64,000 bases of DNA from Conexibacter sp. CPCC 206217. Lineage in GTDB: Bacteria > Actinomycetota > Thermoleophilia > Solirubrobacterales > Solirubrobacteraceae. Positions 13,826 through 20,066 of this stretch are shown piece after piece. The notes under the pieces were generated by a model, which worked only from the letters and a program-made list of their open reading frames with translations, was not told the origin of the DNA and searched no databases. The stretch lies in assembly GCF_030646165.1 (NCBI RefSeq), contig NZ_JAUTDO010000017.1:1-64000 (forward strand), written 5' to 3'. A program made the translations under genes and the position numbers. The first letter of the stretch is position 1. Every line of letters begins with the position of its first letter.

Positions 13826-13855
13826 GCGATGACGTCGCGGGCGATGACGTCGCGG
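13826..13855 (+). repeat. Two tandem 15-bp copies in the intergenic region
   Basis: GCGATGACGTCGCGG is repeated twice head to tail. Each copy contains the palindrome GACGTC, so the pair could be a double binding site. The 237-bp gap 13715-13951 holds nothing else recognisable. Confidence 0.7.
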
Positions 13856-13951
13856 GCGTCTGTCACCTTCCGGGGCAATGGCAGACCGGGAATACGCGAC
13901 GTTCACACGACTGCAATCTCAGGCGCGTCCCCGACGGGGACCATTCAGATC

Positions 13952-15886
13952 ATGAGCGTGCAGTCTCCTCGCCGCCACCTGCGGCCCACCCGCACGGCCC
14001 TTCGCTTCGCCACGGGCTGGAGCCGGCGCCGCCGCACGGTGCTGGCGCTCGTCGCGCTCGGGATCGCCTATGCGCTGGTGATGCAGAACCTCGGCTGGGC
14101 ACAGACGGCGTACTTCGCGCAGGTCAAGGCGTTCGCCGACGGCAACGCGCAGATTGACGCGTATCACTGGGAGACGCGTGACAAGTCGTGGTACGACGGC
14201 CACTTCTACTCCGTCAAGGCGCCCGGAATGGCGCTGCTGCTGACGCCGGCGTACCTCGCGCTCGACGCCGTCGGCGCCGACCGGCTCGCCGACGACGCGG
14301 CCCGCACCGCGCGTGAGCACGGGCCGAGCCGCTGGGACTACAGAGCGCTGCCGGTCCACAACTACGGCTTCAGCGCGGTACGCCGCGACCGCATCCAGGA
14401 TCAGCTCGAACGGCAGTCGCCGATCGTCTGGGCGCTCGGGCTGCTGGGGAGCGTGCTGCCGGCGGTGCTGCTGCTGGCGCTGGTCCGCTGGGCGGGCGAC
14501 CGGCTCGTGCGCGGCGGCGGCCTCGCGGCCGCGGTCACGCTCGGCGCGGGCACGCTGATCCTGCCGTTCTCGACGCAGCTGTTCGGCCACGTGCTGGCGG
14601 CGGCGCTCGCGTTCGCGGCGTTCGCGGTCCTGTTGCGAGAACGCGCAGGACCGTCACGACTCACGCTCGTGGCGCTCGCGGGCCTGTGCGCCGGTTTCGC
14701 CGTGACGGTCGAGTACCCGCTCGCGATAGCCGGCGCGCTGATCGGCCTCTACGCGACCTTCCGCGGCGGCGCGCTCGCGACGTGGCCGGCGCGACTGCGG
14801 CGGGGCGGCGCCTTCGCCGGCGGCGTGCTCGTCGGCGTGCTGCCGCTGATGGCGTACAACGTGTGGGCGTTCGGGACTCTGTGGCACAACTCCTACACGG
14901 GCGCGGTCAGCGTGTCCGGCCGCAGCGGACACGCGCAGCTCGGCCTCAACGACTCGCACTTCTTCGGCATCAACTGGCCGGAGCCGGGCACGGCGCTGGA
15001 GCTGCTCGTGTCGGCGCGCGGCCTGCTGACGATCGCGCCGATCGCCGCCGTCGGCGTCTACGGCCTCGTGCTGCTGTTCCGTCGCGGTCAGCGCGCCGAG
15101 GCGCTGCTGGCGGGCGGGATCGTGCTCGCGTATCTGACCTACGACTCCGGCTACTGGACGCCGTTCGGCGGCGGCACGCCTGGCCCGCGCTTCCTCGTCC
15201 CGCTGCTGCCGTTCCTGGCGCTCGGCTTCGCGACCGCCTGGCGCGCGCGGCCGGCGCTGTGCGCGGCGCTGATGGGGCCGTCGCTCGTGGTGCTGCTGGC
15301 CGCCACGCTCACCCGCCCCCTGATCGGGGATCTCGACAGCGCGGGGATCTGGGCGAGCCTGATCGACTACGACCTGTTCTCCAACACGCTGCTGAGCGCC
15401 TTCGGTCTCGGCAACAGCTGGCCGACGATCCTCCCGGTCCTCGCCTGCGTCGCCTTCGCACTCGCGCTCGCGCTGCCGTGGGGGTCGGGTGGGGGAGCGG
15501 GTGCGCCGGCGGATGACGCCGCGCGCTTGGGAAGTCGCGACGAGCGCGACCTCGCGGCGTCGCTGCGCGCAGGCGGGTCGGCCGCGACGGCTGCGCCTGC
15601 CGGCGCAGCACGCGTCTCACGGCGCGACGTCGTCGTCGCGATCGGGGCCCTGGCGCTGTGGTTGGCGATCGCGGCGACGGCACCGGCGCTGTGGGACGTG
15701 CCGGCGGTCGTCACCGGCGACAGCGGGGCGGCGGCGCTGTTCGCCGCCGGTGCAGCACTCGGTCTGCTGTTGCTCGCGCTCGTCGCACGTTCCCCGCGGA
15801 ACATGGCTGTTGCGGATGAAACAGATACGTCACGGACGCAACGCGGGAACACGGAAGAGCACGACGCCGTCCCGCAGTTCGCGTGA
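13952..15886 (+). CDS. Large polytopic membrane protein, possibly GT-C-type glycosyltransferase
   Basis: This ~644-aa protein has a basic N-terminus, a first helix (VLALVALGIAYALVMQNLGWAQTAYF) and then a long luminal-type loop with conserved-looking aromatic and charged residues (DAYHWETRDKSWYDGHFYSVKAPG), followed by about ten further helices. That topology, with an acidic loop after helix 1, is what membrane-embedded GT-C glycosyltransferases show, but no signature proves it. ATG 13952 is chosen for its position before the basic leader; upstream in-frame starts exist. The last 57 bp overlap the end of the convergent membrane protein gene, and the C-terminal ~120 residues are low-complexity with two extra helices. 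Confidence 0.85.
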   Translation: MSVQSPRRHLRPTRTALRFATGWSRRRRTVLALVALGIAYALVMQNLGWAQTAYFAQVKAFADGNAQIDAYHWETRDKSWYDGHFYSVKAPGMALLLTPAYLALDAVGADRLADDAARTAREHGPSRWDYRALPVHNYGFSAVRRDRIQDQLERQSPIVWALGLLGSVLPAVLLLALVRWAGDRLVRGGGLAAAVTLGAGTLILPFSTQLFGHVLAAALAFAAFAVLLRERAGPSRLTLVALAGLCAGFAVTVEYPLAIAGALIGLYATFRGGALATWPARLRRGGAFAGGVLVGVLPLMAYNVWAFGTLWHNSYTGAVSVSGRSGHAQLGLNDSHFFGINWPEPGTALELLVSARGLLTIAPIAAVGVYGLVLLFRRGQRAEALLAGGIVLAYLTYDSGYWTPFGGGTPGPRFLVPLLPFLALGFATAWRARPALCAALMGPSLVVLLAATLTRPLIGDLDSAGIWASLIDYDLFSNTLLSAFGLGNSWPTILPVLACVAFALALALPWGSGGGAGAPADDAARLGSRDERDLAASLRAGGSAATAAPAGAARVSRRDVVVAIGALALWLAIAATAPALWDVPAVVTGDSGAAALFAAGAALGLLLLALVARSPRNMAVADETDTSRTQRGNTEEHDAVPQFA

Positions 15887-17641
15887 GATGCCGAGGGTGC
15901 GCCACGGGCGTTGCGCCCATGCCGCCCAGGGGCTGCCGGCGAGCCGGTCGCGGTGCAGGACGACCGTGCGCACGCCGAGCGCCTGCAGACGAGCGACCGA
16001 GGCGGCATCGGGGAATCCGGCGATCCGCGTTCTGAGGCCGAGGAAGGCCGGCGGGTTGGTCGAGCTGCGGCCGTTGACCATCAGCGGGAAGCCGTCGGTC
16101 GACCACAGCAGGTAGCGGCGGTTGTCGTCCGCCTCGATCGGCAGCTCCAGCAGCGGCGGCGTCGCGGCCGCGAGGCCGGCGGGCGGCCGCGGCACGGTCG
16201 GGTGCGGCGGGCCGGACAGGCGGCCGCCGTCGAGCGAGAAGGCGCTGCCCTCGAGCAGCACGAGCGCGGTCAGCAGCAGCGGCGCCCAGCGCCAGCGGCC
16301 CTGCAGACGTTGCGCTCCCGCCGCGGCCAGCAGCGCGAGCGCCAGCGTCGTCAGCGTCATCAGGCGGCCGGGGGTGCGGATCGCGTCCCAGCCGGGCAGC
16401 GCCGACAGCCAGCCGTAGGGGAAGAGAAAGCGCACGTCCGGGTCGGAGTAGCCGAGCGCGAGCACCGCGGTCACCAGCACGCCGATCCCGAGCCCCCGTC
16501 GCAGCGGCCGCGGCCAGCTGCCCCAGCCCGCGCCGAGCACCGCCAGCACGACGACGACGAGGCCGGGGAAGAGCGACTGCTCCGCGACGGCGTCGAAGCG
16601 GTCGCGCACCGGCGCCGTCGCGTCCGCCCACACGAAGCTGTCGCGCCCGGCGGCGAGGAACTGCAGCGGCCCGTCGGAGTAGGCGGCGACGATCTCAGGC
16701 CCCCGTCGCGCGCTCGGAAACGCATCGGCGACGCGCAGGTAGATCCGCCCGATCGCCACGCCGACGACGAGGAACAGCAGCCCGCCGGCGGCGGTCGCGG
16801 CGAGCAGCGGCCGGGGGAGCGGCGATGCGGCCGTCCCGCGCCCACCGTCCGCGGCAGCCGCGTCCGCGTGTCGGTCACTCGCCGCGCTTGGGTCGCCAGG
16901 CACGGTCGCGCCGCCGCCTGCGCCGCCGCTTGCGCCGCCGCCTGCCCCGCGCGCCGCTGCCCCCGCGCCGCGTCGCAGCCACCATCGGCGCGTGAGCAGC
17001 ACGAGACCGAGTGCGAGCAGCAGGTAGGCGAGCTGGAGGCCGAGCGTCCAGCCGAGCGAGAGCTGCCACGTCGCGACGATCCAGCCGAGCAACAGGGTCC
17101 ACGGTGCGTCGCGCCGCCAGCCGCGCACGAACAGCGCGAGCGCGAGCGGGATCCCGCCGCTGGAGATCACGTGCAGATGGCCCGCCTGCTCCAGCCGCCA
17201 GGGGGAGAACGCGAACGCCGCGCCGGCGACGAGCGCGGCGGCCGGCGGTGCGCCGAGCGTGCGTGCGAGCAGGTACGCGCCGGAGAACGCGAGCGCGTAC
17301 GCGAACAGGTAGAGCACGTCGTAGCGCGCGATCGCGGCGTGCGGTCCGCGGCCGATCACGCCGGCGGGCGCATAGCCGATCAGCGCGTCGGAGAAGGCGA
17401 GCGTGTCGCGGTACGGATAGAACTGGTTCGCGTCGAACAGGTGCAGCGGCTGGTGCAACAGCGCGTGCCCGCCCCACGCGACCTGCCACGACTGCGACAA
17501 CGGGTCGCCGAGGTCCTTCGCGACGTCGCCGCCGAGGTGCAGCACCAGCGGCCAGTGCATCAGCACGGCGAGCGCCGCGGAGCCGACCGCGAGCAGCAGC
17601 AGCTCGACCGCGAGCGGGGAGGGGCGGCGGACGCGCGACAT
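15830..17641 (-). CDS. Large polytopic membrane protein, GT-C/YfhO-like
   Basis: This 603-aa protein has about twelve helices, a long first exoplasmic loop (DPLSQSWQVAWGGHALLHQP, then FDANQFYPYRDTLAFSDALIG) and a soluble C-terminal domain of ~130 residues containing ELPIEADDNRRYLLWSTDG. This arrangement resembles YfhO-like and other GT-C-fold membrane glycosyltransferases. A ~60-residue Gly/Ala/Asp-rich insertion (around residues 230-285) is probably a cytoplasmic linker. The start is ATG 17641, with no clear Shine-Dalgarno. It converges on the other large membrane protein and overlaps it by 57 bp. The pair may serve the same surface-glycan process; that is inference from type and position. 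Confidence 0.85.
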   Translation of the reverse strand: MSRVRRPSPLAVELLLLAVGSAALAVLMHWPLVLHLGGDVAKDLGDPLSQSWQVAWGGHALLHQPLHLFDANQFYPYRDTLAFSDALIGYAPAGVIGRGPHAAIARYDVLYLFAYALAFSGAYLLARTLGAPPAAALVAGAAFAFSPWRLEQAGHLHVISSGGIPLALALFVRGWRRDAPWTLLLGWIVATWQLSLGWTLGLQLAYLLLALGLVLLTRRWWLRRGAGAAARGAGGGASGGAGGGATVPGDPSAASDRHADAAAADGGRGTAASPLPRPLLAATAAGGLLFLVVGVAIGRIYLRVADAFPSARRGPEIVAAYSDGPLQFLAAGRDSFVWADATAPVRDRFDAVAEQSLFPGLVVVVLAVLGAGWGSWPRPLRRGLGIGVLVTAVLALGYSDPDVRFLFPYGWLSALPGWDAIRTPGRLMTLTTLALALLAAAGAQRLQGRWRWAPLLLTALVLLEGSAFSLDGGRLSGPPHPTVPRPPAGLAAATPPLLELPIEADDNRRYLLWSTDGFPLMVNGRSSTNPPAFLGLRTRIAGFPDAASVARLQALGVRTVVLHRDRLAGSPWAAWAQRPWRTLGISRELRDGVVLFRVPALRP

Positions 17642-17775
17642 CGGCGTCACCGTACGGGACGATGCGGAGGATCGTGTGTCGATCGCGGTGAACGGATCGC
17701 GCTGCCGGCGCAGAGCAGCGGCAAGCTCTGTCCCGCCATGGCGGCACAAACTGCGGCTGCTCGCGGACTGCGGCT

Positions 17776-18834
17776 CTACGCCCGGCCGGCCGAGGTCGCT
17801 GACGTGTCGGGCGACGACGCGACGAGCGCCGTCGCCGGCGGCGGGGCGGACGGGTCGTAGGCGGGCGGGCTGTCGTTGTGCTCGTCGACCCATGTGCGCA
17901 GGCCGCGCCGCAGCGCGCTCAGCGACCTGCCCTGGTCCTCGGCGAACGCGTCGCGCCAGTAGACCGAGACGATCCGGCGGTGCGTGTGCGCGGCGACGCG
18001 TTCGTGGCGACTGCTGGGCGGGACGCGCAGCAGTCGCACGCCGCCGCCCGCGGTGGCGTCGAAGATCGATCGCTGCGAGGCGCCGTCGTTGCGCACGACG
18101 ATCGCGCTGAGCCGCAGACCGCGCATGTCGAGATCGGCGGCGAGGCGGCGGACGAAGCCGGTCGCGTCCTGCGGCGACGGCGGCCCGCCGCGCGTGCGCT
18201 TCAGCTCGGCCCACACGAAACGCGCGTCGACGTCGACGGCGATCAGCTGCCACAGCTGCTGCCCCCTGTGCGTATGCGGCAGCTTCAGGCAGGCGACATC
18301 GACGATGCGGTCCGTCGCTCTGCGCGCCTCTGCGGCCGTGATCGCCATTCCGGTCGCCCGCAGCGGTGCGTCCCGTACGCGGCGTTCAGTCGCGTCGGCA
18401 TTGCGCACCAGGCGACTCGCTCTCGTCCCGGCGTCCTCCGCACCGCCCTCCGCGCCCTTCCCGCGCGCCCCCGCGCGTCTGTCGGCGCGCGGCTTGTTCG
18501 CTCCGCGCGCCTTCCGGCCCGGCACGCGTCGCGTCGGTTTCGCAGGCCGCTTCGGCGGCGCCGCGACGGGCGGCGGCGGGAACCTGTCGGCCAGCTTCAG
18601 GACCGGTCCCCAGCGGCGGCCGACGAAGCGCAGCACGAGTGCGTCGCGCTCGTAGGAGTAGCGGAAGCCGCAGCAGCGCGCGAGCGAGTAGACGCGATTG
18701 CCGACGCGCGTGCGCGGGCGCGGGACGCTGCGCGGCAGGCGCCACGGCGGGATGCCGGCCCAGTGCTGCCACAGCCCCGCGACGCACAGCATGCAGCCGA
18801 TCAGCAGCAACAGCCCGATGAGGAACGCCGTCAT
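17776..18834 (-). CDS. Membrane-anchored protein with a degenerate integrase-core (RNase H-like) domain
   Basis: The 352-aa protein has an N-terminal transmembrane helix (about 3-24), a Cys-containing segment, a long Lys/Arg/Pro/Ala-rich linker (about 88-160) and a C-terminal domain (about 165-335). By eye this domain follows the rve integrase core of IS481/IS3-type transposases: IVDVACLKLP; WQLIAVDVDARFVWAEL; AIVVRNDGASQRS; HTHRRI; and LRTWVDEHNDSPP, like the usual LxxWLxxYNxxRPH. Of the DDE triad, Asp179 is kept, the second Asp is Asn249 (order swapped, ND for DN), and the Glu position appears to be Ala282. It is therefore probably catalytically dead and domesticated. No terminal inverted repeats or transposase N-terminus are seen. 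Confidence 0.6.
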   Translation of the reverse strand: MTAFLIGLLLLIGCMLCVAGLWQHWAGIPPWRLPRSVPRPRTRVGNRVYSLARCCGFRYSYERDALVLRFVGRRWGPVLKLADRFPPPPVAAPPKRPAKPTRRVPGRKARGANKPRADRRAGARGKGAEGGAEDAGTRASRLVRNADATERRVRDAPLRATGMAITAAEARRATDRIVDVACLKLPHTHRGQQLWQLIAVDVDARFVWAELKRTRGGPPSPQDATGFVRRLAADLDMRGLRLSAIVVRNDGASQRSIFDATAGGGVRLLRVPPSSRHERVAAHTHRRIVSVYWRDAFAEDQGRSLSALRRGLRTWVDEHNDSPPAYDPSAPPPATALVASSPDTSATSAGRA

Positions 18835-18917
18835 CGGATCGCACCTCGCCGATCGCCCGCGCCGGGGCGTGACGGCACCGCTTCGAATCCGCTCGGTTCG
18901 GTCAACGTGGAACTTCC

Positions 18918-19006: not shown

Positions 19007-19888
19007 CTATGCGCGCGCGGCGTCCAGAACGAGCTGCGCGAAGCGCTCGGCGCTGCCCGGCGCCGCTTCGAAGTAGAGCGTCGGCTCGACCAGTTCCAGC
19101 TCCATCAGCCAGACCTCGTCGGCCGGTCCGGCGACGAGGTCGACGCGCGCGTACAGCAGCGCGTCGTCGTCCACGCACGCGAGCGCGCGCTCGGCGACGG
19201 CGAGCTGCCGCGGGGTCGCCGTCGCGGGCACGGTGACGGCGCCGAACTCCGGCTGCACGCGGAACTCGCCCGCGGCCGGGCGCTTGCGCAGCACGTGGCT
19301 GAGACGGCGCTCGAAGAAGACGAGCGACAGCTCGCCCGCGACCGGCAGCGACGGTACGAACGGCTGCACCATCGCGTCGCCGGCGGCCGCGAGCGCGGAC
19401 AGGTGCGCCGCGCCCGCCCCGCCGGGATCGCCCGCCGGCACGCGCAGCAGTCCCGACGAGCCGAGTCCGACCGCCGGCTTGACGATCGCCTCGCCTCCGG
19501 CCCAGCCGCGCTCGGCGAGCAGGTCGGCGAGCGAGGGGGAGGGGCCCGCCTGCCCCACCCACGCCGTCGGCACCGTCGGCACCCCGCGCTCGGCGAGCGT
19601 GCGCAGGTAGGTCTTGTCGGTGTTCCAGGCGATCGTCGCGGCGTGGTTGAGCAAGCGTGTCTCGCGCTCGACGCGCGCGGCCCAGTGGACGAACGCGTCG
19701 CGGCGCAGGTGGTAGTCCCACGGCGAGCGCACCAGCACGAGGTCGAACGCAGACCAGTCGACCGCGCCGTCGTCCCACGCGCGCGGCACGACCTCGGCGC
19801 CGAGCGCGCGCACGGCGTCGGCGAGGAGGGCGTCGTCGGGGTCGAGCGCGAGCAGCTCGGTGCAGGTGGCGAAGGCGATCGTCGTCAT
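19007..19888 (-). CDS. ATP-grasp family protein (RimK/glutathione synthetase-like)
   Basis: This 293-aa protein follows the ATP-grasp plan: an N-terminal pre-grasp part (IAFATCTELLALDPDD, then FDLVLVRSPWDYH), a nucleotide-binding lysine region (AIVKPAVGLGSSGLLRV), and a C-terminal metal-binding stretch (ARVDLVAGPADEVWLMELELVEP), where Glu residues ligate Mg-ATP. It probably ligates an amine to a carboxylate through an acyl phosphate. ATG 19888 is preferred because the upstream extension is unlike the family. It is divergent from the PQQ/cytochrome gene. The substrate cannot be determined, and no peptide or siderophore cluster is nearby. Confidence 0.88.
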   Translation of the reverse strand: MTTIAFATCTELLALDPDDALLADAVRALGAEVVPRAWDDGAVDWSAFDLVLVRSPWDYHLRRDAFVHWAARVERETRLLNHAATIAWNTDKTYLRTLAERGVPTVPTAWVGQAGPSPSLADLLAERGWAGGEAIVKPAVGLGSSGLLRVPAGDPGGAGAAHLSALAAAGDAMVQPFVPSLPVAGELSLVFFERRLSHVLRKRPAAGEFRVQPEFGAVTVPATATPRQLAVAERALACVDDDALLYARVDLVAGPADEVWLMELELVEPTLYFEAAPGSAERFAQLVLDAARA

Positions 19889-20066
19889 CGCGCGGCGACG
19901 ATAGCGAGCCCCTGGGAGAGCTGCGGGGAGGGCCTGAAACGTATGGTTGTGCATGCAAGCTTCGCGCCAGAACGCGCTATGTTCGCACGGTCAGAGAAGG
20001 GTCAAGCACCGCAGCATCGGGAAGGGAAGGCTCGTGAGGCCGTTGTTGAGAATCGAGGAGGCAGGC

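What the first reader, a model, noticed from the sequence alone, without database searches (positions are those of the whole stretch)
17776..18834. Domesticated, membrane-anchored dead integrase
A protein with an N-terminal transmembrane helix and a basic linker ends in a domain that follows the integrase-core pattern but appears to have lost two of the three DDE residues (Asn249, Ala282). No inverted repeats or transposase DNA-binding domain are present. A transposase fold tethered to the membrane, facing DNA or RNA through a Lys/Arg-rich linker, would be an unusual reuse.
Basis: inference. Interest (0 to 1): 0.7.

Follow-up and report, generated by a model that had tools for sequence, protein, structure and literature searches.

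The report
Membrane-anchored dead integrase, domesticated
Bacteria of the genus Conexibacter carry a single-copy gene in which the DNA-cutting part of a jumping gene has lost its cutting residues and been fused to a small undescribed protein domain, in some species also to a membrane anchor, so a parasite's enzyme seems to have become a non-cutting host protein of still unknown use.

Summary
The finding holds. The minus-strand gene 18834-17776 (352 aa) has an N-terminal hydrophobic helix, a basic middle and a C-terminal integrase core. The core is homologous to IS481-family transposases (profile comparison 98.5%, E 3.7e-15). An AlphaFold model built from dead orthologues only matches retroviral integrase cores (Foldseek probability 1.00). 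All five orthologues found, all in one genus (Conexibacter), lost the second Asp (R/R/R/Q/Q) and the Glu (A/A/A/V/V). The first Asp is lost or shifted to the invariant D179. The dead cores form one clade, lack the transposase helix-turn-helix, and keep one chromosomal address in three species: domestication rather than a decaying insertion. First, the 'linker' begins with a separate conserved ~45-residue domain (RYSxxRDAYVLRxVGxRxGPVL) that occurs alone as small proteins across the order, matches nothing in Pfam, NCBIfam or PDB, and is unrelated to the transposase. Second, the membrane helix is in only three of five orthologues. The gene evolves fast, so a relic is not fully excluded. Function, DNA/RNA binding and membrane location are untested.

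The parts
17776..18834 (-). whole gene, 352 aa, stop included
   Evidence: this gene or an orthologue in 5 of 7 genomes of the genus
18842..18847 (-). Shine-Dalgarno-like GAGGTG, 7 bases before the ATG
   Evidence: AGGAGG upstream of the G003 orthologue
18772..18828 (-). hydrophobic N-terminal helix, residues 3-21, predicted membrane anchor
   Evidence: hydropathy 2.73; 2.75 and 2.78 in two orthologues, none in the other two; helix 2-25, pLDDT about 80-86 over residues 1-20
18589..18738 (-). small conserved domain, residues 33-82 (RYSxxRDAYVLRxVGxRxGPVL family)
   Evidence: no family in Pfam, NCBIfam or PDB
18325..18588 (-). variable basic linker, residues 83-170
   Evidence: 9-35% identity, length varies; mostly pLDDT below 50
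17860..18324 (-). integrase core without its active site, residues 171-325
18292..18300 (-). D179 to A181: place of the first catalytic Asp (A181 by alignment; invariant D179 two residues before)
18088..18093 (-). R248-N249: place of the second catalytic Asp (lost)
17989..17991 (-). A282: place of the catalytic Glu (lost)
19010..19891 (-). upstream neighbour on the same strand, ATP-grasp protein (weak GSH-S_ATP match); the same neighbour in three species

Best explanation
It is a domesticated, non-catalytic IS481-type integrase core fused downstream of a lineage-specific small basic domain, kept as a single-copy chromosomal gene in Conexibacter. Shown: homology and predicted fold of the core, loss of catalytic residues in all orthologues, single clade, conserved synteny in three species, and the separate conserved small domain. 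Inferred: in this species the protein is a signal-anchor membrane protein with its C-terminal part in the cytosol (few charges before the helix, many positive charges after it). The dead core works as a pairing and binding module, as integrase cores are known to dimerise, rather than as an enzyme. It thereby gives the older small domain (free, or singly anchored, in other genera) a scaffold that can hold nucleic acid or a protein partner near the membrane. The identity is about 90% likely; the scaffold role about 30% likely, and no direct evidence names its ligand.
For: Homology: profile comparison of five dead orthologues with four live IS481-like transposases, 98.5%, E 3.7e-15 over 153 columns; the live relatives match NCBIfam IS481 at E 1e-56 to 1e-58. 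Fold: AlphaFold from dead orthologues alone gives strand-strand-strand-helix-strand-helix order, core pLDDT about 80; best PDB matches are HIV-1, STLV, ASV and MMTV integrase cores with probability 1.00. Loss of Asp2 and Glu in all five. One clade with support 100/99. Conserved address near ATP-grasp, PQQ/cytochrome and sigma-factor genes in three species. No match on plasmids or phages, one copy per genome. Constraint: the core aligns almost without gaps over 154 residues at 42-51% identity in the three syntenic orthologues, while the linker falls to 9-29% and varies in length. Small domain: coding shown by free third positions at invariant residues and by Ser coded as AGC or TCN.
Against: The gene evolves fast: counted dN/dS is 0.9-1.0 over the whole gene against 0.5-0.8 for the ATP-grasp neighbour and 0.15-0.19 for the sigma factor. 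dS is capped by 91-97% GC at third positions, so this is not a clean neutral signal, but it weakens the claim of strong selection. Two orthologues lack the membrane helix and sit at other loci. Two of seven genomes of the genus lack the gene. AlphaFold confidence is moderate (mean pLDDT 72 for the core alone). Nothing tests dimerisation, binding or location.
Confidence: 0.6

Rival explanations
1. A slowly decaying relic: an IS481 piece that fused by accident to a small gene, its open frame surviving because stop codons are rare in GC-rich DNA.
For: Overall counted dN/dS near 0.9-1.0 among three species; absent from two genomes of the genus; fast divergence.
Against: Five intact frames over divergent species; the core keeps register and its Trp and Leu positions while the adjacent linker does not; dN/dS 0.5 for the core of the closest pair; good ribosome sites in two species; conserved address.
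Confidence: 0.15
2. A transposition inhibitor: the dead core pairs with live IS481 transposases and poisons them, the membrane helix sequestering them.
For: Live or degraded IS481 copies are present in the genus, and integrase cores multimerise (general knowledge).
Against: The nearest live relatives are in other genera. G003 carries the gene and also three identical full-length IS481 copies. The DNA-binding HTH part expected of a competitor is missing.
Confidence: 0.12
3. The core retains an enzymatic activity through invariant D179 and other acids, as a different nuclease of the RNase H-like superfamily.
For: D179 is invariant in all five and lies in the first strand of the core.
Against: No second or third invariant acid lies at the catalytic places; E278 is missing in G003 and D250 is not shared.
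Confidence: 0.07

Closest known systems
IS481-family transposases (NCBIfam NF033577; Pfam rve PF00665, rve_3 PF13683)
   Same: homologous core over about 153 aligned columns, including the WQ, W and N landmark positions
   Different: no HTH domains, catalytic Asp2 and Glu lost, no terminal repeats, single copy, fused to another domain
Retroviral integrase catalytic cores (HIV-1, ASV, STLV)
   Same: predicted fold, target-normalised TM-score about 0.6
   Different: under 20% identity, no active site; the resemblance reflects the shared DDE superfamily
TnpA_REP (RAYT), described as the first bacterial domesticated transposase (PMC8266576)
   Same: bacterial transposase kept as a housekeeping-like gene
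   Different: an active HuH enzyme of the IS200/IS605 kind; this one is a DDE core without active site
Eukaryotic domesticated transposases that lost catalysis, such as ALP1/ALP2 (PMC7282668)
   Same: catalysis lost, new role for the host
   Different: eukaryotic, another superfamily, partners known

Membership tests
IS481-family transposase | homologous integrase core | tested here: met
   E 3.7e-15; fold
IS481-family transposase | DDE triad | tested here: not met
   Asp2 and Glu replaced in all five orthologues
IS481-family transposase | N-terminal helix-turn-helix DNA-binding region | tested here: not met
   the N-terminal domain is unrelated to the HTH part (probability 0.2%)
IS481-family transposase | terminal inverted repeats and mobility | tested here: not met
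   conserved synteny in three species
domesticated transposase | single copy at a stable chromosomal place, inherited vertically | tested here: met
   (three species; two others have it elsewhere)
domesticated transposase | purifying selection on the protein | tested here: inconclusive
   core constrained relative to linker, but counted dN/dS near 1 overall with capped dS
domesticated transposase | a function for the host | not testable with these tools
   needs expression and knock-out
single-pass membrane protein | one hydrophobic helix of membrane length | tested here: met
   hydropathy in this and two orthologues, not in two others; no experiment

The most novel reading that the evidence does not exclude
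A bacterial host protein in which a DDE integrase core without active site has been recruited as a membrane-tethered scaffold, by fusion to an order-specific ~45-residue domain that is itself a new protein family, linking chromosomal DNA or RNA to the membrane.
Probability: 0.25. Interest if true: 0.75.

Novelty: new variant of a known kind. Interest (0 to 1): 0.52.

Why it matters
The paper on bacterial domesticated transposases read here treats the catalytically active TnpA_REP as the first. A DDE core that lost catalysis in every descendant yet kept its fold would show that bacteria, like eukaryotes, reuse transposase folds for non-enzymatic work. The fused small domain marks an undescribed family present in about one in six sampled Solirubrobacterales-type genomes (37 of 232) and gives a handle on its role.

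Tried and rejected
Pfam and NCBIfam scans of the protein and orthologues gave nothing above threshold, so homology had to be shown by profile comparison with live relatives. Rfam found nothing in the region. The idea that the N-terminal domain is a relic of the transposase HTH, suggested by the joint alignment, was rejected by profile comparison. Neighbours of the free-standing small domain (19 loci) show no shared partner (by reading their sequences: rplL and rpoB, lysC, hrcA and dnaJ, nuo genes, phoH), so context gives no function. A phylum-wide sample found the small domain only in the order apart from two borderline matches; a class-wide sample found dead cores only in the genus, other matches being transposases or weak. 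Sequence search of PDB with the profiles gave only chance matches. A lipoprotein reading (LIGC at residues 11-14) was dropped because the Cys is not in the orthologues and sits inside the helix. Papers on Conexibacter or on dead bacterial integrase domestication were not found in the held library; Bertels 2017 on domesticated bacterial transposases is not held.

Full report
What is there. The frame lies on the minus strand, 18834 to 17776, 352 residues. Its ATG has a GAGGTG seven bases upstream, and the G003 orthologue has AGGAGG upstream of its start, so the hydrophobic N-terminus is likely real. Four segments can be told apart: a hydrophobic helix (3-21), a small conserved domain (33-82), a variable basic linker (83-170) and a core (171-325).

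The core is an integrase core. A direct protein search finds transposases of other genera with modest matches, including an element with five copies in one genome (E 7e-11). Those proteins carry HTH and rve domains and an intact DDE and belong to the IS481 family. A profile of the five dead orthologues matches a profile of four live ones at 98.5%, E 3.7e-15, over 153 columns. Independent of any transposase sequence, AlphaFold on the window protein with three dead orthologues gives the strand and helix order of an RNase H-like fold. Foldseek then returns retroviral integrase cores (HIV-1, STLV, ASV, MMTV) with probability 1.00 and target-normalised TM about 0.6 for the isolated cores.

The active site is gone in every orthologue found. 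In the joint alignment the second Asp is R, R, R, Q, Q and the Glu is A, A, A, V, V. The first Asp aligns to A, V, A, A, A, but an invariant Asp (D179) sits two residues earlier and a small shift of a gap would align it, so the first position is left open.

It is not a decaying insertion copy in the usual sense. There is one copy per genome, none on plasmids or phages, no HTH and no convincing flanking repeats. The dead cores form one group against all live ones, support 100/99, although long branches are involved. In this genome, G005 and G003 the gene sits after the same ATP-grasp gene and near the same PQQ/cytochrome and sigma-factor genes. The public names of three orthologue records are Conexibacter sp. 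CPCC 205762, MAG Conexibacter sp. RYN_242 and a MAG named Solirubrobacterales bacterium. In G001 and G002 the gene is elsewhere and has no membrane helix. G004 and G006 of the same genus lack it.

The overlooked domain. Residues 33-82 recur mostly as free small proteins in 37 of 232 genomes of the order, with the pattern PRPRRxV...LRPLFRYSxxRDAYVLRxVGxRxGPVL. In a phylum-wide sample the domain is otherwise absent but for two borderline matches. It is coding: at invariant residues the third position is free, and one conserved Ser uses AGC in 15 and TCC or TCG in 14 of 31 rows. No Pfam, NCBIfam or PDB family matches. It is unrelated to the transposase HTH. Some free members also have an N-terminal hydrophobic helix (the second copy in L026, and the one in L029). 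The free genes have no common neighbour. The likely history (inference) is that a gene for the small domain captured the core of an IS481-type element in an ancestor of Conexibacter.

Constraint. Among the three syntenic species the core is 42-51% identical and the small domain 52-69%, against 9-29% for the linker, and the core keeps its length. Counting dN/dS gives 0.9-1.0 over the whole gene against 0.5-0.8 for the ATP-grasp neighbour and 0.15-0.19 for the sigma factor. With third positions at 91-97% GC in the fusion and ATP-grasp genes, dS is capped and the ratio inflated, but the gene is clearly fast-evolving. For the closest pair the core gives dN 0.17, dS 0.34.

How it may work (inference). 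Few charges before the helix and many positive charges after it predict a cytosolic C-terminal part. With no active site, the core can serve as a pairing or binding module. The small basic domain and the linker could touch nucleic acid. The ligand, the dimer and the membrane location are untested. In two species the same fusion exists without the helix, so the tether cannot be the essence of the function.

Novelty. Domesticated transposases are known. TnpA_REP is called the first bacterial one and is a HuH enzyme (PMC8266576). I found no account of a bacterial DDE core that lost catalysis and was fused in this way, in a library that lacks many journals. I file it as a new variant of a known kind.

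Noticed in passing
L024-L048, L104-L122: An undescribed family of small basic proteins (RYSxxRDAYVLRxVGxRxGPVL) is spread over the order at unrelated chromosomal places, such as between rplL and rpoB, after an aspartokinase gene and before hrcA; some genomes have two or three copies.
   Followed up: partly
L032 / L111 (G144): The same small domain is the N-terminus of a much longer protein with a basic middle and a membrane helix followed by a further domain: a second, independent fusion.
   Followed up: no
L026 1240-2080: Two small-domain genes lie in tandem in G225, the second with its own N-terminal hydrophobic helix.
   Followed up: no
G000:C1:587512-588416 (L126): The window's own genome carries a broken IS481-family transposase gene (internal stop and split frame).
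   Followed up: no
window 15833-17690 (-) and 13829-15883 (+): Two large predicted membrane proteins beside the gene have no Pfam match at E 0.001; they are present beside it in this genome and G005 but not at this place in G003.
   Followed up: partly
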